Part shown: in pieces, positions 1,639 through 25,412 of the stretch | Layout of the letters: every line of letters starts with the position of its first letter | Position numbering within the stretch: the first letter of the stretch is position 1 | Assembly: GCA_947630035.1 (NCBI GenBank) | Contig: CANRFW010000008.1 | Span: 1-32,300 of the forward strand | DNA: 32,300 nt | Direction: 5' to 3' | Source: an uncultured Clostridia bacterium | Lineage (GTDB): Bacteria > Bacillota > Clostridia > Christensenellales > Borkfalkiaceae | Made by a program: the position numbers and the translations under genes | Notes under the pieces: model-generated | What the model was told of the DNA's origin: nothing | The model's input: only the letters and a program-made list of their open reading frames with translations | Databases searched by the model: none

Positions 1639-3366
1639 ATGGCAAACGTAAACCTTAAGATCAACAATATTCCCGTCACCGTTCCCGAGGGAACGACCAT
1701 TCTGGAGGCGGCACGGAAGGCGAACGTCGTCATCCCCACCCTCTGCTATCTGAAGGACGTGAACTGCGTCGGCTCCTGCCGCATGTGCCTCGTGGAGGCC
1801 ACGGGTGCGCGCGGGCTGGTGGCGGCTTGCGTCTACCCCGTCGCCGAGGGCATGGAGGTACAGACCAACACCGAAAAGTGCAGAAAGAGCCGTAAAATGT
1901 CCCTCGAACTTCTTCTTTCCAAGCACAAGAAGAGCTGCCTCTCCTGCGAGAGAGCGGGCAACTGCGAACTGCAGCGTCTCTCCGTGGAGTACGACTGCGA
2001 TCCCAACTACTTCGAGACCGACCCCAACCTCGACCATCCCATCGACGTCTCCGCTCCCTATGTGGTGCGCGACCGCGACAAGTGCATCAACTGCACCCGC
2101 TGCGTAGCCACCTGCAAGAGCCAGCACGTCGGCGCGATCGGCCCCATCGGGCGGGGCTATGTCTCCCATATCGGGAGCGCGTTCGAAATGTCCCTCATGG
2201 AATCGGTGTGCGTGGGCTGCGGCCAGTGCATCGTCGCCTGCCCCGTGGGCGCCCTCTACGAGCGCACCACCGTGGACGAGGTGTGGGCCGCCATTGCGGA
2301 TAAGACGAAGAAGGTCGTCTTCTTCACCGCTCCCTCCGTCCGCGCCACGCTCGGCGAGGCGTTCGGGCTTCCCGTCGGCACCAACGTCGAGGGCAAGATG
2401 GTCGCCGCCATCCGCAAGCTCGGCAGCGGCATCGAAGTCTTCAATATGGACGTGACCGCCGACCTCACCATCATGGAGGAGGCGAACGAACTATTAAACC
2501 GCATCCAGACGGGCGGCGTCATGCCCATGTTTACGAGCTGCTGCCCCGGTTGGGTGAAGTTCGTGGAACAGAAGTACCCCGAGATGATCCCCCACCTTTC
2601 CACCTGCAAATCCCCGCAGGAAATGTTCGGCGGGCTTCTCAAGACCTATTACTGCGAGAAGAACGGCATCGATCCCAAAGATCTCTATGTCGTCTCCGTC
2701 ATTCCCTGCACGGCGAAAAAGTACGAGTGCAAACGCCCCGAGATGAACGGCGAGGTGGACGCGGCGATCACGACCCGCGAGCTTGCCCGCATGATCAAGA
2801 CGGCGGGCATCAACTTCAAGGACCTCAAGAAGGAACCCTTCGACGATCCTTTCGCGACCTGCTCGGGCGGCGGCACCATCTTCGGCGCGACGGGCGGCGT
2901 GATGGAAGCGGCGCTCCGCGTTGCGGCGAAGACCCTCGACGGCGACTTCGAAGTGGTGGACTTCCCCGAAGTCCGCGGTGCCGTCCCCATCAAGGAGGCA
3001 ACGTACAAGGTCGCAGGCAAGACCATCCGCGTGGCGGTCGCCAGCGGGCTCGGCAATGCGGCGGAGATCATCGAGGGCATCAAGAAGGGAACGCGGCATT
3101 ACGACTTCGTCGAGATCATGGCGTGCCCCGGCGGCTGCGTGAACGGCGGCGGCCAGCCCACCTTGCCCGATGAGATCCGCAACTCCAAGAACCTCAAGGA
3201 GCTTCGCGCGAAGGCGCTCTATAAGAGCGACAAGAAGAACAGCATCCGCCTCTCCTCCGAATCGCCCGTGATCGACACCATCTACGGCGAATACTTCGGC
3301 GCTCCCAACAGCCACAAGGCGCACGAGGTCCTGCACACCTCCTACAAGGCAGACCCGAGAATCTGA
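1639..3366 (+). CDS. hydA: [FeFe] hydrogenase catalytic subunit (HydA/HndD-like)
   Basis: N-terminal 2Fe-2S and 4Fe-4S ferredoxin domains. H-cluster motifs FTSCCPGWVKF, PCTAKKYECKRPE, MACPGGCVNGGGQP. C-terminal small-subunit domain (YGEYFGAPNSHKAHEVLHTSY). Confidence 0.96.
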   Translation: MANVNLKINNIPVTVPEGTTILEAARKANVVIPTLCYLKDVNCVGSCRMCLVEATGARGLVAACVYPVAEGMEVQTNTEKCRKSRKMSLELLLSKHKKSCLSCERAGNCELQRLSVEYDCDPNYFETDPNLDHPIDVSAPYVVRDRDKCINCTRCVATCKSQHVGAIGPIGRGYVSHIGSAFEMSLMESVCVGCGQCIVACPVGALYERTTVDEVWAAIADKTKKVVFFTAPSVRATLGEAFGLPVGTNVEGKMVAAIRKLGSGIEVFNMDVTADLTIMEEANELLNRIQTGGVMPMFTSCCPGWVKFVEQKYPEMIPHLSTCKSPQEMFGGLLKTYYCEKNGIDPKDLYVVSVIPCTAKKYECKRPEMNGEVDAAITTRELARMIKTAGINFKDLKKEPFDDPFATCSGGGTIFGATGGVMEAALRVAAKTLDGDFEVVDFPEVRGAVPIKEATYKVAGKTIRVAVASGLGNAAEIIEGIKKGTRHYDFVEIMACPGGCVNGGGQPTLPDEIRNSKNLKELRAKALYKSDKKNSIRLSSESPVIDTIYGEYFGAPNSHKAHEVLHTSYKADPRI

Positions 3367-3380
3367 CCTCAAAACCAAAA

Positions 3381-3407
3381 AACCGCCTCTTCGGAGGCGG
3401 TTTTTTT
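3381..3407 (+). terminator. Rho-independent terminator after hydA
   Basis: ccgcctc-tt-cggaggcgg-like stem (ccgcctcttcggaggcgg) followed by ttttttt, 15 bp after the hydA stop. Confidence 0.9.
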
Positions 3408-3460
3408 CATGCTTTCTCTATGGTCTTCCCCAATGTCCTCCCTCCGCACTCCCGCGCCGC

Positions 3461-3485
3461 AATCCGCCCGCCAAGCGGATTTTTT
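3461..3485 (+). terminator. Second terminator-like hairpin
   Basis: aatccgc-ccgccaa-gcggatt stem-loop followed by tttt. Confidence 0.45.
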
Positions 3486-3521
3486 GCTTATATTATCTAC
3501 GATTTTCCGCTCGGCACGAAA

Positions 3522-3549
3522 ATAACATACGTTATATAACATATGTTAT
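3522..3549. repeat. Two abutting 14-bp palindromic operator-like sites
   Basis: ATAACATACGTTAT|ATAACATATGTTAT. The second is a perfect 14-bp palindrome; the first is an imperfect copy. Confidence 0.7.
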
Positions 3550-3582
3550 AAGAACGCCCTCCCCCTTGCGGCAGACGAAGAA

Positions 3583-3612
3583 AGCCGCCCGTGCGGGGGC
3601 GCACGGGCGGCT
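3583..3612 (-). terminator. Terminator for the minus-strand esterase operon
   Basis: 12-bp perfect arms agccgcccgtgc / gcacgggcggct, followed on the minus strand by ttcttc. Confidence 0.75.
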
Positions 3613-3636
3613 GTAATACATGTTATTCGCTATCGC

Positions 3637-4377
3637 TTATCGGCTTCCCTTTCTCTGCGAGAAGAGCCACTTCAGCGTGGGCGGGTTTTCCTCATCGCCC
3701 GCGTAGGCAACGGCCCTGTCCCATATGCCGTGGCCGCCGCCCTCGAAGGCGACGTAGCGGATCTTCCCCTTGCCGAACTTTCCGATCGCCCGCACCATCT
3801 CCTCGGTGCAGCGCACGGGGACAACGGGGTCCGCCGTGCCGTGGAAGGTATAGATGGGGATATCCGCGAGCTGTTCCGCCTTGGTGGGGTCTCCCCCGCC
3901 GCAGATGGGAATACCCGCCGCAAAGAGGTCCCCGTGCCGCGTGAGCATGTCCCATGTGCCGAATCCGCCCATGGAAAGCCCGAAGATGTAGACGCGGTCT
4001 TTATCCACGGTCCCCGCCGCCACCGTGTCGGAGACGAGCTTATAGACGAGTTTCAGTTGGGGCGTTTCGGGCGTGCCATCCACCGAGTAGAAAAAATCGG
4101 GGTGGGTGTAGTCCGCCCAATACTTCTCTTCGGGGCACTGCGGAGCGATGACGACGGAGCGGTAGAGTTCCTTCTCCACCGTAAACGCGGGCAAAAGGGC
4201 GAGGGCGAGCTGCTTCTCGTTGTCCCCTCCCCGCTCCCCCGCGCCGTGCAGGAAGAGGACGAGGGGCGGCTTCTTTGTACCGCTCTCCGGCATGCGGATG
4301 CGGTAATCGATGCTCCCCTCCGCGCCCGTGTAAGTTTTCCGTGCAAACTGTTCCGCAAGCTCCCGATCGTAAGACAT
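3637..4377 (-). CDS. Alpha/beta-hydrolase esterase (CE1/feruloyl-esterase-like), no signal peptide
   Basis: LVLFLHGAGERGGDN, nucleophile elbow GLSMGGFGTW, FHGTADPVVPV, GHGIWD. Confidence 0.8.
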   Translation of the reverse strand: MSYDRELAEQFARKTYTGAEGSIDYRIRMPESGTKKPPLVLFLHGAGERGGDNEKQLALALLPAFTVEKELYRSVVIAPQCPEEKYWADYTHPDFFYSVDGTPETPQLKLVYKLVSDTVAAGTVDKDRVYIFGLSMGGFGTWDMLTRHGDLFAAGIPICGGGDPTKAEQLADIPIYTFHGTADPVVPVRCTEEMVRAIGKFGKGKIRYVAFEGGGHGIWDRAVAYAGDEENPPTLKWLFSQRKGSR

Positions 4378-4386
4378 ATCCTTCTC

Positions 4387-5445
4387 CTATTTGATTTTTT
4401 TCTGTTCAAAGAGCCATTTCAGCGTGGGAGGATTCCTGTCGTCCCCCTGAAAGGCGAGCGCCTGATCCCAGATCACATGCCCCGCGCCCTGATACTCCAC
4501 ATAGTGGATAAGCCCCTTCCCCTGCCGCTCGATGGCCTCCACCACCGTTACGGTGCCCTCCACGGTGATATTGGTGTCCGCCGTGCCGTGGAAGGTATAG
4601 ATGGGGATCTCCGCGAGCTGTTCCGCCTTGGTGGGGTCCGCGCCCCCGCAGATGGGAATGCCCGCCGCAAAGAGATCGCCGTGCCTCGTAAGCATATCCC
4701 ATGTGCCGAATCCGCCCATGGAAAGCCCGAAGATGTAGACGCGGCTCGCATCCACATAGTCCTGCCCGATATACTCTTCGAGGAGCTGCGCCGTGAGTTT
4801 CAGCTGTACGCTCTCGGGAATTTGGTCGACGCTGTAGAGGCCGTAAGTCCAATCGACCTCCACCCACCGTTTGTTCCGCGGGCACTGCGGGGCAATGACG
4901 ACGGAATCGTACATTTCACACTTATAGCTCGAATACGTTTTGAGGACGGCGAGATCGAGCTGGGCGTCGTTGTCGTCCCCGCGCTGTGCCGCGCCGTGCA
5001 GGAAGAGGACGAGGGGGACGGGGCGGTCGGTGTGATCGGGCATGCGCACGCGGTAACCGATGGAATTGGTCCCGTCCGTAAACGTCTTCTCCTCGAACTG
5101 TGCGCGGACCTCGCTCTCGGTGAGGGCAACGCCCACGGCGATCCGCTCCTCCGCGGTCTTATCCCGATAGGTTACGGTGACGGCAACATTCTCCGCCGTG
5201 AGGGCGGCTGTGGGCGAGTAGGTGTAATCGGTGACCTGCTCCTCCGTGCCGTCGCTGTAATGCGCCGTGACGACAAGCCCCGCGGGATCGAATTTCTCCC
5301 CCACGTTGTAGCGGGTCTCGTATTCTCCGCCGAGGGTGATCCCCGTGAGGGTCGCGGGCACCTTCTCTTCGCCGCACGCCGCGGCGCCGAATGCCGCCAT
5401 GAGGCACACCGCAAAGGACGCGGCCGATAACAATGCTTTTTTCAT
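4387..5445 (-). CDS. Lipoprotein esterase: Big-type Ig-like domain plus CE1-like alpha/beta hydrolase
   Basis: Start trimmed to MKKALLSAA... (SD aaggagat upstream). Lipobox ...AAFGAAAC. Ig-like GEKFDPAGLVVTAHYSDGTEE. Esterase domain GLSMGGFGTW shared with the neighbouring gene. Confidence 0.82.
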   Translation of the reverse strand: MKKALLSAASFAVCLMAAFGAAACGEEKVPATLTGITLGGEYETRYNVGEKFDPAGLVVTAHYSDGTEEQVTDYTYSPTAALTAENVAVTVTYRDKTAEERIAVGVALTESEVRAQFEEKTFTDGTNSIGYRVRMPDHTDRPVPLVLFLHGAAQRGDDNDAQLDLAVLKTYSSYKCEMYDSVVIAPQCPRNKRWVEVDWTYGLYSVDQIPESVQLKLTAQLLEEYIGQDYVDASRVYIFGLSMGGFGTWDMLTRHGDLFAAGIPICGGADPTKAEQLAEIPIYTFHGTADTNITVEGTVTVVEAIERQGKGLIHYVEYQGAGHVIWDQALAFQGDDRNPPTLKWLFEQKKIK

Positions 5446-5473
5446 ATGGATCTCCTTATCGTAAGATAGACCC

Positions 5474-5502
5474 ATTGTACCCGAACGCCGCCCGCCTTTC
5501 AA
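5474..5502 (-). promoter_or_regulatory. Promoter for the esterase operon
   Basis: Minus strand TTGAAA-17 bp-TACAAT upstream of the 5445 start. Confidence 0.7.
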
Positions 5503-5564
5503 GTGAAAATTTGCGCAAACTGTATTGAAAAACGACGAATTCGTTCGGAAAATGTGAGAATTTC

Positions 5565-5864
5565 TCAATCCTCCGCCTCGAGATAGAAGCTGACGGGGCG
5601 GAAGCCGTCGTTACAGGAGACCATGGCGGAATGGGGATCTTTCATCCAGCCGCCGAAAAAATTCCCGCCGCCGCATGCAAGTTCCTTTACGAACTTCTCC
5701 ATGTTCTCCCATGCGCCCGCGCACAGCCCCGCGGGCCTCTCGCCCGTTGAATAGAAGACCTGCCCCTCGCGGACGGAACACGGCTCCTCTGGGAAATTTT
5801 CGTATTTTGCGGAGAGATCGGGGTACTCCGTTCTCCGCACGGCGGTGATCTTTACGCGCGGCAT
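5565..5864 (-). CDS. TIGR04076-like small protein
   Basis: 99 aa, VKITAVRR...GLCAGAWENM...SCNDGFRPVSFYLE pattern; SD aaggag upstream. Confidence 0.6.
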   Translation of the reverse strand: MPRVKITAVRRTEYPDLSAKYENFPEEPCSVREGQVFYSTGERPAGLCAGAWENMEKFVKELACGGGNFFGGWMKDPHSAMVSCNDGFRPVSFYLEAED

Positions 5865-5900
5865 GCTTTCTCCTTTTTCCCCGAAAATGGGGACATGGGG

Positions 5901-7211
5901 TCAGATTTTTCGGAAAATCTTCGAAGAGAAGGGGGGAAGATGCACCTCGCTTAAGAGGGTGCGCTCCCCCGTAAACACGTCCTCCCCCTCCCCGTCTCCC
6001 GCATGGAGAACGCAGTCCGTTTCGGCGATATTGACGGCGACGAGGAGCCTCTCCCCTCCCCCCTCGCGGAGGAAGGAAAAGTCGGTATTGCGGAGGGTGA
6101 CCTTCGTATACGTCCCATAGGCGAGGGCGGGGCTTGCAGCGCGCAGACGGGCAAGGCGGGCGAGGTGAGAAAAGAGGTCGCTGCGGGAGCGGTCGATCTC
6201 ACATGCTGCGGGGCGGAGGCGGTAGTCCCCCTCCGATTTATCCCCCTTCGCCGCGTACTCCGAGCCGTAGTAGATGCAGGGAATGCCCGGCATCGTGAAG
6301 AGAACGGAGTATAGGCCGAAGAGGTTGCGCCCCTCCTTGAGGGCGGTGGCGGCGCGCTCCACGTCGTGATTGTCGACGAACGAAAAGAGGTTCTTGCCGC
6401 GGAGGAGCGCCCACGGGAAGTTGCCGAAGAGACGGGAGAGGGAGTACTCGATCTCGAAGAGGTTGCGCGAATTGAACGCCGAGACGAGGCTGCGGTAGCC
6501 CTCGTAATTGGTGATCGAATCGAGCCGCGAGGGGCAGAGGTTCTGCGCGAAATTGTTGAGGTGGATGACCTCCCCCATGAGGAAAAAGTCCTCCTTCTCG
6601 GCATTCACCGTGCGGCGCAAGAGTTCCATGAACCACGGCGGGAGGAGGTAGCTTACGTCGAGACGGAGCCCGTCGATATGGAACTCGCGGATCCAGAAGC
6701 GCACCGCATCCATGAGATAGTTTTGAAGGTCTGCGTTTTCGAGGCGGAGCTTGACAAGCTCGGGGTGCCCCTCCCAATCGGCGTAAGAAAGCCCGTCGTT
6801 ATAGCGGGAATTGCCGTGAAAATCTACGTTGAACCAGAAGCGGTAGTCCGTCCCCTCCCTCTTTTCAAGCACCTCGCGGAAGGGAGGAAATCCCCGCCCG
6901 ACGTGGTTGAAGACGCCGTCGAACACCACCCGTATCCCCGCCGCATGGAGGGCGTCCACCATGTGCGCAAGCTCCCCGTTCGTGCCGAGACGGCGGTCGG
7001 CGCGGAAGAAGTCCACCGTGTCGTAGCCGTGCCGCTCGCTCTCGAAGAGGGGGTTGAAGAGAACGGCCGTCACGCCGAGTTCGAGAAGTTTGGGGATCTC
7101 CGCCTCGATCGCCTGAAACCTGTGGCGGGTCTCCCCGAAGTCGTTCTCCCGCTCCGCGCCGCAAAAGCCGAGGGGGTAGATCTGATAAAACACTGCCTCG
7201 TCAAACCACAT
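5901..7211 (-). CDS. GH13 alpha-amylase family glycosidase
   Basis: FYQIYPLGF, GVTAVLFNPLFES, GIRVVFDGVFNHVG, HIDGLRLDVSYLLP, FMGEVIH, FSFVDNHDVER (GH13 conserved regions). Confidence 0.9.
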   Translation of the reverse strand: MWFDEAVFYQIYPLGFCGAERENDFGETRHRFQAIEAEIPKLLELGVTAVLFNPLFESERHGYDTVDFFRADRRLGTNGELAHMVDALHAAGIRVVFDGVFNHVGRGFPPFREVLEKREGTDYRFWFNVDFHGNSRYNDGLSYADWEGHPELVKLRLENADLQNYLMDAVRFWIREFHIDGLRLDVSYLLPPWFMELLRRTVNAEKEDFFLMGEVIHLNNFAQNLCPSRLDSITNYEGYRSLVSAFNSRNLFEIEYSLSRLFGNFPWALLRGKNLFSFVDNHDVERAATALKEGRNLFGLYSVLFTMPGIPCIYYGSEYAAKGDKSEGDYRLRPAACEIDRSRSDLFSHLARLARLRAASPALAYGTYTKVTLRNTDFSFLREGGGERLLVAVNIAETDCVLHAGDGEGEDVFTGERTLLSEVHLPPFSSKIFRKI

Positions 7212-13262: not shown

Positions 13263-13350
13263 GGAAGGTTGGCAGAGCGGTCGAATGCGGCGGTCTTGAA
13301 AACCGTTGACGGGCAACTGTCCGGGGGTTCGAATCCCTCACCTTCCGCCA
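13263..13350 (+). tRNA. tRNA-Ser(UGA), CCA encoded
   Basis: ggaaggt acceptor pairs with accttcc; anticodon loop cTTGAAA (TGA); long variable arm; T arm gggggttcgaatccctc; terminal gCCA. Confidence 0.95.
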
Positions 13351-13597
13351 ATTTCGGGGGCGGGCATAGAGATATGTCCGCCTTTTATTTGCATATCTTT
13401 CTTCCGCGCGGCGCGCTTTTCCATGTATTCGAGATAATCGAGGTATTCGTCGTAATCGGTAAAGCCGAGCCGTTCCCTTTCTTTTCGGGCGTTCTTGTAC
13501 TCGTTTATCCTTTGACAAAACAAGGGCAAAATCGGACCTATTCCGAAAAATTTTTCGTCGGCATAATCGCCATTAACATCTATTTTACCCCTGTTAT
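13338..13597 (-). pseudogene. N-terminally truncated ORF remnant adjacent to the tRNA (short form 13338..13529 uses TTG)
   Basis: Reading upstream of the TTG gives a continuous open frame (ENNRGKIDVNGDYADEKFFGIGPILPLFCQRINEYKNARKERERLGFTDYDEYLDYLEYMEKRAARKK...) back to a stop, with no ATG. The end overlaps the tRNA 3' end in antisense. Confidence 0.4.
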
Positions 13598-13642
13598 TTT
13601 CTCATAATTTTGTATTATCGGAAGTTGACGGTCAAAAAATTT

Positions 13643-14533
13643 TTAGTATTTCACTTTGAAGTAATCAAGCCAAGTCTTGAATTTGTCCTGCGCGGCAAGG
13701 CAGGTATCGCGCAAGTATCCGCGCTCGGTTTTCCATTCTTTCAATCCGCGGTAGTAGAACAGTTTCAACTCCTCGTCGATGATGAACGGCACGATATTGT
13801 ATTTCAGGCACTCCTTAAAGAGGAGAAGCCGCCCGATTCTGCCGTTGCCGTCTTGAAAGGGATGAATACACTCGAAACGGTAATGAAAATCCAACAGATC
13901 GTCGAAGAATTTTTCTTTGTTTGAGTTGTATTCAAAGAGCAGTTCCTTCATCTTGCCCCCGACTTCTTCGGGACTTGCCGTGTACATATCACCGACGGTG
14001 TTGGGGAGCTTTTTGTAATCGCCGGTCATAAACCAAGACTCGCGCGCATCGGTCGTCCCGTTTTTCAGTGTGCGGTGCAATTCCTTGATAAAAGCCTCCG
14101 CAATCGGCCTTCTTGCGTTTTCTATAATGAGGTCAATACACTTGAAATGATTCGCCGTTTCAACGATGTCGTCCACTCTTACCGAGCCGCCGTCGATCCC
14201 GATCGTGTTCGTTTCAAAAATGTACCGTGTCTGGTCATGAGTAAGGCGGCTTCCCTCGATATGGTTGGAATTGTAAGTCAGTTCTATCTGGACCTTATGA
14301 TAAATTCCGCCCGAAAGTTTCGCGTTTTTTTCGGCGGTCAGCACTTCCAAAAGCGTGGTGGGGGCGGTCGATTTTTTATTGATACGGTCGGGCTTCTCGG
14401 CATCCTCGGGGATATTCCACGTCTTTCCCGTCAGAAAAGCGTTGTCGATTTTCCCGAGCGCACAATAATTCCGAACGCTCCGTTCGGACAAATTCCACTT
14501 CTTCGCCGTTTCAGTTACGGACAGATACTTCAT
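13643..14533 (-). CDS. Fic family protein with N-terminal HTH-like segment, class II autoinhibited type
   Basis: Fic core HPFQDGNGRIGRLL; inhibitory-helix motif SNHIEG; N-terminal LSVTETAKKWNLSERSVRNYCALGKI looks like a helix-turn-helix. Confidence 0.92.
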   Translation of the reverse strand: MKYLSVTETAKKWNLSERSVRNYCALGKIDNAFLTGKTWNIPEDAEKPDRINKKSTAPTTLLEVLTAEKNAKLSGGIYHKVQIELTYNSNHIEGSRLTHDQTRYIFETNTIGIDGGSVRVDDIVETANHFKCIDLIIENARRPIAEAFIKELHRTLKNGTTDARESWFMTGDYKKLPNTVGDMYTASPEEVGGKMKELLFEYNSNKEKFFDDLLDFHYRFECIHPFQDGNGRIGRLLLFKECLKYNIVPFIIDEELKLFYYRGLKEWKTERGYLRDTCLAAQDKFKTWLDYFKVKY

Positions 14534-14552
14534 TCAAAATCACCTCATGATA

Positions 14553-14581
14553 AGTATAGCATAAAATCGGCAAGAAAGCAA
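14553..14581 (-). promoter_or_regulatory. fic promoter
   Basis: Minus strand TTGCTT-17 bp-TATACT; SD gaggtgat before the ATG. Confidence 0.7.
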
Positions 14582-14748
14582 GAGTTATCGGCTCTGATTT
14601 TTATTATTTTTGCCGTTATCGGTAATCGCCATTACAATTTATATACCCGACGGTCTCATCTACAAAATCTCTACAAAACTTATCGGAAAAAGTGAATCTC
14701 CGAGGAGACGGCAACAATCGGCAAAAATCGTTAAATAGCAATAAAAAA

Positions 14749-14783
14749 GGCTCAAAACCGCATTTTGTACGGGTTTTAAGCCT
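14749..14783 (-). terminator. Minus-strand terminator-like hairpin
   Basis: ggcttaaaacccg...cggttttgagcc on the minus strand followed by ttttttatt. Confidence 0.5.
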
Positions 14784-14849
14784 GAAATTCGGGAATCAAG
14801 TATCAACAACGATAGATAACAGTCGGTAACGATAAACACGGTACGGGGA

Positions 14850-14873
14850 CTTGAAAACCGTTGGCGTGCAACT
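14850..14873 (+). repeat. Partial tRNA-Ser copy (candidate att repeat)
   Basis: cttgaaaaccgttggcgtgcaact versus cttgaaaaccgttgacgggcaact in the tRNA at 13295-13318: 22 of 24 identical. Confidence 0.65.
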
Positions 14874-14905
14874 CGCTTGAACACAAGTTCAAGCGAGTTG
14901 CTTTT
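14868..14905 (+). terminator. Perfect 15-bp hairpin with T tract
   Basis: gcaactcgcttgaac-acaa-gttcaagcgagttgc followed by tttt on the plus strand. Confidence 0.65.
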
Positions 14906-21042: not shown

Positions 21043-21828
21043 ATGAACATGACTTTGGACAAACTCGTCGTACGGCGCATCTATGCCGTCAACACGATCC
21101 GCCACCGCCGGCCCGTCAAGATGACGCGGCGGGACCGCCACCTCTCCGCGCTCGCATACAAGACGTCGGGCGAATCGGTCTATACGGGGGGCGGCGTAAG
21201 CTGCGTCTCCGACCCCGCGCATCTCGTCCTGATCCCCCCGAACGTGCCCTATTCCATCGACGTCGCGGAGACGGGGACGTGCTACATGATCGAATTCGAA
21301 TGCGCCGCGGAACTCGACGCCTTTCAGAGTTTCCCCGTGACGGACCCCGACGGCACCGAAAAGCTGTTCCGCAACCTCTGCGACGTGTGGGCGATGCACG
21401 CGGCGGGTTACGAGGCGGCGTGCATGTCCTGCGCTTACGAGATCTTCTATAAGGTACATGTCGGCGCGATCAAGGTGCGCTACACGGGGAAGCGGGCGGT
21501 ACTCGAACCCGCGATGGAATTTTTGAAGACCCACCTCTCCGACCCCGGGCTCTGCAACGCGGCGCTCGCCGAACGCGCGGCGGTCAGCGAGGTCTATTTC
21601 CGCAAGCTCTTCACCGAGGAATACGGCGTTTCGCCCATGCAATACGTCCGCACGTTGCGGATCGAAAAGGCCAAAGATATGCTGCTGGGCGACTACTCCT
21701 CGGTCGCCGCCATCGCCGAAGTGACCGGCTTCGCCTCGGTCTACTCCTTTTGCCGCGCCTTCAAAAGCACCACCGGCCTCACCCCCACCGAGTACTCCCG
21801 CCACTCCCGCAGGGTCAAAACAAAGTGA
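21043..21828 (+). CDS. AraC family transcriptional regulator
   Basis: C-terminal double HTH (CNAALAERAAVSEVYFRKLFTEEYGVSPMQYVRTLRIEKAKDMLLGDYSSVAAIAEVTGFASVYSFCRAFKSTTGLTPTEYS) and N-terminal cupin-like sensor. Confidence 0.93.
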   Translation: MNMTLDKLVVRRIYAVNTIRHRRPVKMTRRDRHLSALAYKTSGESVYTGGGVSCVSDPAHLVLIPPNVPYSIDVAETGTCYMIEFECAAELDAFQSFPVTDPDGTEKLFRNLCDVWAMHAAGYEAACMSCAYEIFYKVHVGAIKVRYTGKRAVLEPAMEFLKTHLSDPGLCNAALAERAAVSEVYFRKLFTEEYGVSPMQYVRTLRIEKAKDMLLGDYSSVAAIAEVTGFASVYSFCRAFKSTTGLTPTEYSRHSRRVKTK

Positions 21829-21869: not shown

Positions 21870-21899
21870 AGCGGCGGGGCGCCCGATGCGCCCCGCCGC
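21870..21899. repeat. 30-bp hairpin repeat, left copy
   Basis: agcggcggggcgcccgatgcgccccgccgc; 12-bp perfect arms, loop ccgat; identical to 23933-23962. Confidence 0.95.
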
Positions 21900-21989
21900 G
21901 ATTTATATAAAAAGAAAGCGTGCGACTTTTCCGCTACCGTGACCAGATAAAAACAAGGCGGATTTTGATGATAAATGCATTCCAAGGTG

Positions 21990-22018
21990 TTGATTTTTTA
22001 TTGAAATTATGGTATTCT
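21990..22018 (+). promoter_or_regulatory. DUF262 gene promoter
   Basis: TTGATT-17 bp-TATTCT. Confidence 0.6.
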
Positions 22019-22050
22019 ATTTTTACTAAAGATAAGGGAGATAAGGGGCT

Positions 22051-23895
22051 GTGATAAAGTCGGTTCATGATTATCATGTTGATGATTTACTGAAAGCGGA
22101 TGCGAATTATTACTATAAAATACCAAAATATCAAAGAGCGTATACATGGAGTCTATATCATTGGAAGGCCCTGTATGACGATTTGATGGAAAATGGAAAA
22201 GAATATTTCATAGGTACAATTATTTGCATCAATACCGCGGACGATGCAATCGGTTGCCAGTGCTTGGAAGTGGTCGACGGCCAGCAAAGGCTGACCACTA
22301 TTACTCTTTTCATGGCCGCTATTTATAACAAACTAAAATCAAGAGAACATATCATTAAAGATGATGAGGATTCTTATGATGATTATAGGTCATTAAAGAA
22401 GTCTCTCATTTGTCGCGGATCAAAAGAAAACGGGCTGATTTTAGTCCCTCAATCGGAAGGTCATAATAATGTTGATTATGCCTTTATTATGTCGTCCTTG
22501 GGATTATCAAACGGAAGAAAGGAAAAGAACTTCGGGAATCGGAAAATTGCTAAATGCTACAAATATTTTGCCGACAGGTTAGAAACGGAGATCAACGGGC
22601 TTTCGGATATTGATGCCATTAAGAGAATTTGCGAAATCTATGCAATTATAAAGAAGGCCGTAGTTGTTAAAATCGAAGTTTCAAATAGCTCCGAGGCCTA
22701 TATGTTGTTTGAATCTTTGAATAACCGTGGTGCGACCCTTACCCCCATTGAACTGATGAAAAATACCATCTTGGCGCGTGCAGAACAAAACGGTTTGTCT
22801 CCCAGCGATTGCTATGATAAATGGCAAGAGCTGTTGGAAGACATCTCTGATGATTATGGGACGCAGGAAAGATTTTTCCGTCATCATTATAATGCATACA
22901 AAAACAAGATAAATATACCGTTCCGCAAAGAGGATGAAAAGAAGAAAGATGTGTTAGGAAATGTGGCCACTAAATCCAATCTGTTAAATATTTATGAAGC
23001 ACTTATAAAGCGTGACTTGGCCGGTTTTCTTGACGATATTCTAAAAAGCGGAAAAACTTATTCCATGTTTCTTCTTATTAACGAAGAGGATACAAGATTT
23101 AAGAAGGAATTGGCAAGCTTGTACCGCGTTCAAGGAACGCCGTCTTATTTGTTGCTGTTATATTTGGTGCGGGAACAGAGTAATTTGAATTTAACGAATG
23201 AGACAATAGCAAAAATAATCAATTTACTAACCACATTTTTTGTGCGAAGAAATTTGACCGATATACCCAATACCCAAGACGTAACACGGATTTTTATGAA
23301 TATTATCGGCGAGATTGAAGATAAAAATCTGAATGGTGACGAAATATATGGCCATATATATAGCGTTTTGGTTGCCAAATCGGCATCCGACGACCTCTTT
23401 AAGGAAAAACTTCAAGGGGATATCTATGAGGATAACGTTGGGATTACCAGATTTCTGCTTTGCGCGCTTGCAGAGTGCTACATGACAAAGGAAACTTATA
23501 AGGATTTGTGGGCGCAAACCGAGCAGGGTAGCAACGGCAAAAAAATCTACGAATGGACGATAGAACACATATTCCCGGAAGGGGAAAACATTCCGGCAGA
23601 TTGGGTAACAATGATCGCGGACGGAGATATGGTTCTTGCCCAAAGCCGCCGCGAAGAATATGTCCATAAACTCGGGAATTTAACAATCACGGGATATAAT
23701 AGTAAATTGAGTAATATGTCTTTCATTCGGAAAAGAGACCGTAAGGATGAGAACGGAAATTTCATTGGTTATAAAAACGGCCTTGGCATCAATGCGGAAA
23801 TTGCACAGAAAGACAAATGGACTATAGCAGATATCGAAGTCAGGACGAGAGCTTTAACGGATAGGTTCCTTGAAATGTACAAATTATCCAATTAA
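22051..23895 (+). CDS. DUF262/DUF1524 (GmrSD-like) protein, candidate type IV restriction/antiphage nuclease
   Basis: DUF262: IPKYQRAYTWSLYHW...EVVDGQQRLTTITLF. DUF1524 HNH-like: WTIEHIFPEG...HKLGNLTITGYNSKLSNMSF. GTG start, AT-rich relative to neighbours. Confidence 0.9.
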   Translation: MIKSVHDYHVDDLLKADANYYYKIPKYQRAYTWSLYHWKALYDDLMENGKEYFIGTIICINTADDAIGCQCLEVVDGQQRLTTITLFMAAIYNKLKSREHIIKDDEDSYDDYRSLKKSLICRGSKENGLILVPQSEGHNNVDYAFIMSSLGLSNGRKEKNFGNRKIAKCYKYFADRLETEINGLSDIDAIKRICEIYAIIKKAVVVKIEVSNSSEAYMLFESLNNRGATLTPIELMKNTILARAEQNGLSPSDCYDKWQELLEDISDDYGTQERFFRHHYNAYKNKINIPFRKEDEKKKDVLGNVATKSNLLNIYEALIKRDLAGFLDDILKSGKTYSMFLLINEEDTRFKKELASLYRVQGTPSYLLLLYLVREQSNLNLTNETIAKIINLLTTFFVRRNLTDIPNTQDVTRIFMNIIGEIEDKNLNGDEIYGHIYSVLVAKSASDDLFKEKLQGDIYEDNVGITRFLLCALAECYMTKETYKDLWAQTEQGSNGKKIYEWTIEHIFPEGENIPADWVTMIADGDMVLAQSRREEYVHKLGNLTITGYNSKLSNMSFIRKRDRKDENGNFIGYKNGLGINAEIAQKDKWTIADIEVRTRALTDRFLEMYKLSN

Positions 23896-23932
23896 CATTC
23901 GATTTAGTGTCCAAGTTTTCCGTCAGACAAAC

Positions 23933-23970
23933 AGCGGCGGGGCGCCCGATGCGCCCCGCCGCTTCCTTTT
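23933..23970 (+). terminator. 30-bp hairpin repeat, right copy, acting as terminator
   Basis: Same 30-mer as 21870-21899 followed by ttcctttttt. Confidence 0.85.
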
Positions 23971-23987: not shown

Positions 23988-25412
23988 TTACGAAACGGTC
24001 ACGTTCCCGAAGACATACCACTTGTCCGCCGTGCCGCCCTCGCTGCCGAGGAGGTAGGCGGGAAGTTCGTCGTCCAAACTCTCAAAAAGCCCCGCCGCGA
24101 TCCTGTATTCCCCCGCGGGCACGTCCTCTGCCGTGATCGTCACGTTCTCCTGCGAGGCCGTCCCGGGGAGCCATGCCTTGGGGTCGATATCGGTCGCATA
24201 CTTTTTCACCGCCCTGCCTTCGCCGTCGAGGAGGGCGAGGACCACGTAGCACGGCTCGTAGACGGGGGTGATGCCGTCGTTGCGGAACTCGAGGATGACC
24301 TCGGTCTCCCCCGCAAGCTCCTCTTTGTACCATGCCCTCTTGAGACGGAAGTAGTACCCCATGCGGTTGGCAAGCTCCTCGCAATACTCCTTGTTCGCCC
24401 TGTACCAATCGACGTCAAGCTCGATATAGGAGGGTTTCGCGATGGCGATCGCCTCCTCCAACTTCTGGTTGAAATACGCCCCGCCCCGCTCGGGATCCTC
24501 GGCGTAGTGATCGTACCCCCGCGCAAACTCAAAGGCGACGGGGAGTTTTCCGTACGCCTCGGCGAGCATGTCGAGGCCGTTCGTGTAGGAGATGATCCCG
24601 TTGCGGCGGACGGAGACCCTCTCCTCCATGAGTTCGCGGTAGACGCCGTTGAGGTCGTCGTACCCCCACGTGTTGTAGAGAAGGGTATCGGGGAACGCCT
24701 CGATATAGGGTTTTATGTACCTGTCCCTGAAAAACGCGGGGCTGACCTTTCCCTTTTCGCTGTAATTCTCGATGCCCGTTTCAAGCCCGAAGAGGTGCTG
24801 TTCCCCCCAATTCCCGTAAGTTAAGATATCGACGAAGGCAATGTCCTCCTGCCCGTTATACCGCCGCCCGAGTTCTGCGGCAAATTCCGCCGCCTCCTCG
24901 AGATAGACGTCGTCGTCCCACTTGGGGATATATTGGACCTTCTCCTCCCCGCCGTCGAGAAAGTGATGAAGGTCGTATTTCCCGCTCCTCTCGAAGACGA
25001 ACTGCGGGGTAATGTACTCCTCCGTGGAGGAGGTATTCACGCTCATCACGCCGAAGGCGAACTTCCTTCCCACCTTTTGGAAGTACCCGCGCCAGCTCTT
25101 TTCGAGCTTATCGAAGTTGTAGACGCCGTCCGCCGTCTCGAGGTCCGACCACGAGAAGCGGTGGTACCCCACGGCATAGAGATAGGAAAGCTCCTTGAGT
25201 TCCTCGTAGGCGCCGCCGTAGTAGACGAACCCCTTGCCGGGGTTGATGAGAACGTCGTCGGTGTCTGCGAGGACCGCAGCCGTCATCCCCTCTTCGGGGA
25301 GCGGGGGATCGGCGGGCGCAGGCTTCGGCGCGGGCGTCTTCCCTTTACAGCCGCAGACGGGCGAGACGGCAAGGAGCGCGGAGAGCGCAAACAGCCATGT
25401 TTTCCCTTTCAT
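23988..25412 (-). CDS. Lipoprotein with TIM-barrel glycosidase-like domain (DUF4832/DUF4874-like)
   Basis: Signal peptide with lipobox-like SPVCGC; INPGKGFVYY; HRFSWSDLETADGVYNFDKLE; DILTYGNWGE; C-terminal beta-sandwich-like tail. Confidence 0.6.
   Translation of the reverse strand: MKGKTWLFALSALLAVSPVCGCKGKTPAPKPAPADPPLPEEGMTAAVLADTDDVLINPGKGFVYYGGAYEELKELSYLYAVGYHRFSWSDLETADGVYNFDKLEKSWRGYFQKVGRKFAFGVMSVNTSSTEEYITPQFVFERSGKYDLHHFLDGGEEKVQYIPKWDDDVYLEEAAEFAAELGRRYNGQEDIAFVDILTYGNWGEQHLFGLETGIENYSEKGKVSPAFFRDRYIKPYIEAFPDTLLYNTWGYDDLNGVYRELMEERVSVRRNGIISYTNGLDMLAEAYGKLPVAFEFARGYDHYAEDPERGGAYFNQKLEEAIAIAKPSYIELDVDWYRANKEYCEELANRMGYYFRLKRAWYKEELAGETEVILEFRNDGITPVYEPCYVVLALLDGEGRAVKKYATDIDPKAWLPGTASQENVTITAEDVPAGEYRIAAGLFESLDDELPAYLLGSEGGTADKWYVFGNVTVS

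What the first reader, a model, noticed from the sequence alone, without database searches (positions are those of the whole stretch)
21870..23962. AT-rich DUF262/DUF1524 nuclease cassette bounded by two identical 30-bp hairpin repeats
Seen: agcggcggggcgcccgatgcgccccgccgc occurs at 21870-21899 and 23933-23962 with no mismatch. The sequence between is visibly AT-rich, while both flanks are GC-rich, so the composition change coincides with the repeats. The cargo is one promoter plus one DUF262+DUF1524 gene. Established: DUF262/DUF1524 proteins include the GmrSD type IV restriction enzymes and other antiphage nucleases. Inference: a single-gene defence cassette captured at, or mobilised via, terminator hairpins. 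Recombination between the copies would excise the gene and leave one intact terminator behind araC. No transposase or integrase is present.
Basis: partly seen in the sequence, partly recalled or inferred. Interest (0 to 1): 0.72.

Follow-up and report, generated by a model that had tools for sequence, protein, structure and literature searches.

The report
Defence gene inserted between duplicated terminators
A single foreign gene, probably an anti-phage DNA-cutting enzyme, sits between two identical copies of a hairpin that looks like a transcription terminator in an uncultured bacterium, as if it had been inserted at that hairpin and duplicated it; the sequence supports insertion but does not show how it happened or that the gene can move again.

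Summary
The 30-mer lies at 21870-21899 and 23933-23962 with no mismatch, occurs nowhere else in this (incomplete) genome assembly or in 102 other species of the genus at up to 3 mismatches, and brackets a 38% GC segment in about 59% GC DNA. Between the copies is one complete GmrSD-type gene (DUF262 plus DUF1524, 22051-23895, motifs intact), without a close homologue in the congeners searched; its best relatives are in distant bacteria.

The insertion reading is well supported but not proven: no species representative keeps the araC/DUF4832 junction, so no empty site could be seen.

Three things temper it. The hairpin stem, with other loops, recurs in 13 of 103 genus genomes. GmrSD genes in general are not enriched for flanking direct repeats (5 of 61, versus about 6% for neighbouring genes). 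No other AT-rich island of this genome has such borders, apart from one pair of repeated genes.

In the same window a second AT-rich, integrase-less, single-gene segment (Fic) lies between tRNA-Ser and a 27-nt partial copy of it; relatives sit at other loci in two congeners. Best reading: two small genomic islets, one at a terminator, one at a tRNA. Mobilisation is inferred.

The parts
21870..21899 (+). left copy of the 30-bp hairpin repeat, 3' of araC; lacks a T tract
   Evidence: exact match; fold -30.6 kcal/mol
21900..22050 (+). AT-rich 5' region of the cassette (possible promoter TTGATT-17-TATTCT read by eye, ribosome site AAGGGG before GTG)
   Evidence: sequence; no match in 103 genus genomes other than itself
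22051..23895 (+). 614-aa GmrSD-type protein: GmrSD_N (DUF262, DGQQR at residues 76-80) and GmrSD_C (DUF1524, E505-H506, N543, N555)
23933..23962 (+). right copy of the 30-bp hairpin repeat, followed by TTCCTTTTTT; lies between convergent genes
21043..21828 (+). AraC-family regulator, left flank
   Evidence: HTH_18 2.1e-22
23988..25412 (-). DUF4832 protein, right flank, convergent
   Evidence: PF16116 4.4e-13; relatives (52-66% identity) with other neighbours in 4 congeners
13292..13318 (+). 27-nt repeat, copy inside tRNA-Ser(TGA) 13263-13350 (second islet, parallel case)
13643..14533 (-). Fic/DOC protein, the only substantial gene of the second islet
   Evidence: PF02661 1.3e-18
14847..14873 (+). 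27-nt repeat, second copy (24/27), far border of the Fic islet

Best explanation
The 2.06-kb segment is a horizontally acquired genomic islet: one GmrSD-type (type IV restriction-like) nuclease gene with its own upstream region. It was inserted into the terminator between two convergent chromosomal genes, leaving a direct 30-bp copy of that terminator on each side. Shown: exact repeats found only here, coincident composition change, single intact gene, no close homologue in congeners. Inferred: insertion as a small circle carrying one copy of the hairpin (recombinase-type crossover at a dyad core, recombinase supplied in trans or since lost, or Campbell-type crossover over about 30 bp of homology), and a role in defence by NTP-dependent cleavage of modified phage DNA, as reported for GmrSD and BrxU.
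For: The repeats are found only at this place in the genome assembly and in the genus. GC breakpoints fall at the repeats within tens of bases. GC3 is 0.42 against 0.82-0.85. No close homologue in the congeners searched; best homologues are 42-56% identical in Angelakisella, Prevotellamassilia, distant members of the same order and a Pseudomonas plasmid. Of 29 AT-rich islands in 1.59 Mb of this genome, this is the only one with an exact >=20-bp direct repeat at both borders apart from one pair of repeated genes; 0.8% of random placements reach 28 bp. A parallel islet in the same window, Fic between tRNA-Ser and a partial tRNA-Ser copy with no integrase, has relatives 90-91% identical at other loci in two congeners. 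A distant GmrSD island (G074) lies between approximate copies of a hairpin region, next to a tRNA-Leu, whose 26-nt core occurs only twice in that genome.
Against: No empty site and no excised form has been seen. The stem recurs in 13 of 103 genus genomes, three times with the same loop in one of them (G032), so a pair could arise without insertion. GmrSD loci in general show no excess of bracketing direct repeats (5/61, about the same as neighbouring-gene controls). In E. coli a distant homologue in the hsd region varies in presence, with no bracketing repeats found at the one locus checked. The three tyrosine recombinases found in this genome lie on other contigs. Defence activity is inferred from the family only.
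Confidence: 0.6

Rival explanations
1. The gene came in by homologous replacement between flanking sequences, as seems to happen in E. coli hsd regions, and the two hairpins are ordinary genus terminators that became identical by gene conversion or local copying; they played no part in the insertion.
For: The stem is a recurrent genus hairpin, identical copies occur in one genome in G032, an E. coli DUF262 locus varies in presence without bracketing repeats, and GmrSD loci are not enriched for repeats.
Against: This stem with the loop CCGAT occurs only in these two copies, both near the composition borders. Copy 1 lacks the T tract of a typical terminator, although several single copies in congeners also lack it.
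Confidence: 0.25
2. A decayed remnant of a larger integrase-encoding island whose attL and attR are the 30-mers; the integrase was deleted.
For: An apparent tRNA-linked island exists in this genome (C39, exact 25-nt tRNA-Ser copy 13 kb away), and integrases are reported as enriched near GmrSD genes (PMC4619093).
Against: No integrase fragment was seen between the repeats; the interval is filled by an intact gene with 37 bp before the right repeat.
Confidence: 0.1
3. Assembly artefact: a contig from another genome joined at a shared 30-mer.
For: The genome is a fragmented assembly (138 contigs, 76% complete).
Against: It would need the foreign contig to carry the same rare 30-mer at both ends; the 30-mer was not found elsewhere in the genus or, as its 29-nt core, in the viral collection. 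Read data were not available.
Confidence: 0.05

Closest known systems
GmrSD / BrxU type IV restriction enzymes (DUF262-DUF1524)
   Same: domain order, DGQQR motif, E/D-H-N-N nuclease motif
   Different: substrate untested; not in an R-M or BREX locus here
PADLOC HEC-06 and Orf5 models
   Same: near full-length matches, 8.3e-60 and 6.2e-67
   Different: model match only; no function follows from it
Integrase-less genomic islets with attL and attR (CIME-like)
   Same: cargo between direct repeats, no recombinase, foreign composition
   Different: no autonomous partner element with the same site was found; the repeat is a terminator-like hairpin, not a tRNA end
tRNA-targeted islands (compare the Fic islet of the same window)
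   Same: AT-rich, one gene, direct repeat, no integrase
   Different: different repeat and target; the Fic repeats are 24/27 identical rather than exact

Membership tests
GmrSD (DUF262-DUF1524) family | GmrS domain with DGQQR | tested here: met
   PF03235 5.6e-37; D76-R80 invariant in alignment
GmrSD (DUF262-DUF1524) family | GmrD HNH motif E/D-H...N...N | tested here: met
   PF07510 1.3e-17; E505 H506, N543, N555; motif from PMC4619093
GmrSD (DUF262-DUF1524) family | cleavage of DNA with modified cytosine | not testable with these tools
   needs an assay
Integrase-less att-bounded islet (CIME-like) | direct repeats at both borders | tested here: met
   30/30 identical
Integrase-less att-bounded islet (CIME-like) | no recombinase inside | tested here: met
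   one gene only; the three tyrosine recombinases found are on other contigs
Integrase-less att-bounded islet (CIME-like) | empty site with one repeat in a relative | tested here: inconclusive
   locus not syntenic in the relatives examined
Integrase-less att-bounded islet (CIME-like) | partner element with the same att site | tested here: not met
   core absent from 102 congeners (<=3 mismatches) and from the viral collection (exact)

The most novel reading that the evidence does not exclude
Bacteria of this genus exchange single defence genes as small integrase-less circles that integrate, with a recombinase acting in trans, at dyad-symmetric sites: terminator hairpins (GmrSD gene) and the tRNA-Ser anticodon region (Fic gene).
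Probability: 0.2. Interest if true: 0.7.

Novelty: new member of a known kind. Interest (0 to 1): 0.4.

Why it matters
If insertion at terminators is real, it is a harmless landing place for single defence genes: neither neighbour is broken. It would give a concrete site at which to test how lone defence genes are gained and lost. Two such islets 7 kb apart in one contig make the question testable with strain-level data.

Tried and rejected
Scans of the genome and viral collections with the single protein found nothing; an alignment query found 80 loci. The idea that GmrSD genes recur between direct repeats looked promising by exact matches (L121, L130, L137, L157) but failed against neighbouring-gene controls (eight control rows with start coordinates at or below zero were spurious self-matches and are discounted by hand). 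Of the loci that looked promising, L121 (flank too short) was not among the 61 and L157 did not count because its repeat overlaps the gene end. The 30-mer as a member of this genome's abundant REP-like hairpin families: rejected, only two copies. Other terminator-bracketed AT islands in this genome: none convincing (C45 7785/8554 belongs to a repeat family). The tail of the genome (C109-C138, about 0.1 Mb) could not be read. Literature searches found no description of a GmrSD gene bracketed by terminators.

Full report
Observation. The two 30-mers are exact, in direct orientation and found only at this place in the genome assembly held. Each forms a strong hairpin; the right copy has a T tract, the left copy does not. 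Between them GC is 0.38 against 0.59 outside. Breakpoints fitted to GC alone lie at the repeats when the hairpins are included and within tens of bases when they are masked.

Cargo. One 614-aa protein with GmrSD_N and GmrSD_C domains, best PADLOC models Orf5 and HEC-06, motifs DGQQR and E-H-N-N intact by alignment against the motifs given in PMC4619093. It has no close homologue in 36 congeners or in the 396-genome sample of the order at 1e-30 within the genus; the few congener matches are weak. Best relatives are 42-56% identical and taxonomically scattered. Together with GC3 of 0.42 this means horizontal acquisition.

Is the bracketing special? In 1.59 Mb of this genome, 29 AT-rich islands were listed; only this one has exact >=20-bp direct repeats at both borders, apart from one pair of repeated genes. 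Of 3000 random placements 0.8% reach 28 bp. The 29-nt core of the 30-mer is absent from 102 other genus genomes at up to 3 mismatches and from the viral collection as an exact match. However, the stem with any 3-8 nt loop is present in 13 of 103 genus genomes, eight times in G032 and three of those with one loop. The stem is therefore a recurrent genus hairpin, and the weight of the argument rests on the shared loop and on the position of both copies.

Is it a property of GmrSD genes? Of 61 testable loci 5 have a direct repeat of at least 36 bits across the gene, against about 12 of 195 neighbouring genes once spurious rows are removed. No enrichment. One parallel is notable: in G074 a GmrSD island lies between approximate copies (89% over 93 bp) of a hairpin region next to a tRNA-Leu; the 26-nt core occurs only twice in that genome. 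Part of the tRNA end is also repeated there, so a tRNA-directed island is the simpler reading for that case.

Empty site. DUF4832 relatives in four congeners have other neighbours, and the araC gene has no close relative. No species representative examined preserves the junction, so the decisive comparison could not be made.

A second islet in the window. The AT-rich stretch 13263-14901 begins with tRNA-Ser(TGA). A 27-nt stretch of the tRNA (13292-13318) is repeated at 14847-14873 (24/27), and the only substantial gene between is a Fic protein. In G009 and G014 a 90-91% identical Fic segment, with a similar tRNA-Ser-like end, lies beside genes that read by eye as hsdM/hsdR-like and lemA-like respectively. 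That segment has therefore occupied different loci. It shows that small integrase-less single-gene segments with att-like ends exist in this genus, which raises the plausibility of the insertion reading for the GmrSD gene without proving it.

Mechanism. The most economical model is one crossover between a circle carrying one hairpin and the resident terminator, by a tyrosine-type recombinase in trans (the core is 12-bp arms around 5 bp) or by short-homology recombination. Three tyrosine recombinases were found in the genome, on other contigs; none can be linked to the site. Everything after 'inserted at the terminator' is inference.

Verdict. Observation confirmed; insertion likely; mobility unproven; protein family known. 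Interest moderate.

Noticed in passing
window 13263-14901; L300; L301: AT-rich single-gene Fic islet at tRNA-Ser with a 27-nt partial tRNA copy at the far end and no integrase; 90-91% identical segments at other loci in G009 and G014.
   Followed up: partly
G000 genome, e.g. L050, L084, L085: Abundant dispersed hairpins with a common core GCCCGCCCGC/GCGGGCGGGC and outer arms that differ between copies yet stay self-complementary (CGTCTCAAAC, CGTCAGTGGC, CGTTTTTGC...), REP-like.
   Followed up: no
genus-wide, e.g. G032, G461, G010: Hairpin stem GCGGCGGGGCGC/GCGCCCCGCCGC recurs with hypervariable loops in 13 of 103 species.
   Followed up: partly
L068 (G074:C27) 1935-6071: Three-gene AT-rich block (by eye PLD-like and GIY-YIG-like genes around a GmrSD gene) between approximate copies of a hairpin region 3' of tRNA-Leu; part of the tRNA end is also repeated.
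   Followed up: partly
L137 3216-6820: Three ~65-bp copies of the 3' end of a gene separate two blocks, one holding a DUF262 gene: looks like serial insertion at a gene end.
   Followed up: partly
L121 2415-4958: About 230 bp including the 3' end of a transporter-like gene is repeated (81%) on the far side of a lone DUF262 gene.
   Followed up: partly
G000:C39:122-13287: 13-kb stretch between tRNA-Ser(CGA) and an exact 25-nt copy of its 3' end; no PF00589 recombinase detected in it.
   Followed up: no
L088, L067: A macro-domain-like gene (by eye) lies beside the GmrSD homologue in two distant genomes.
   Followed up: no
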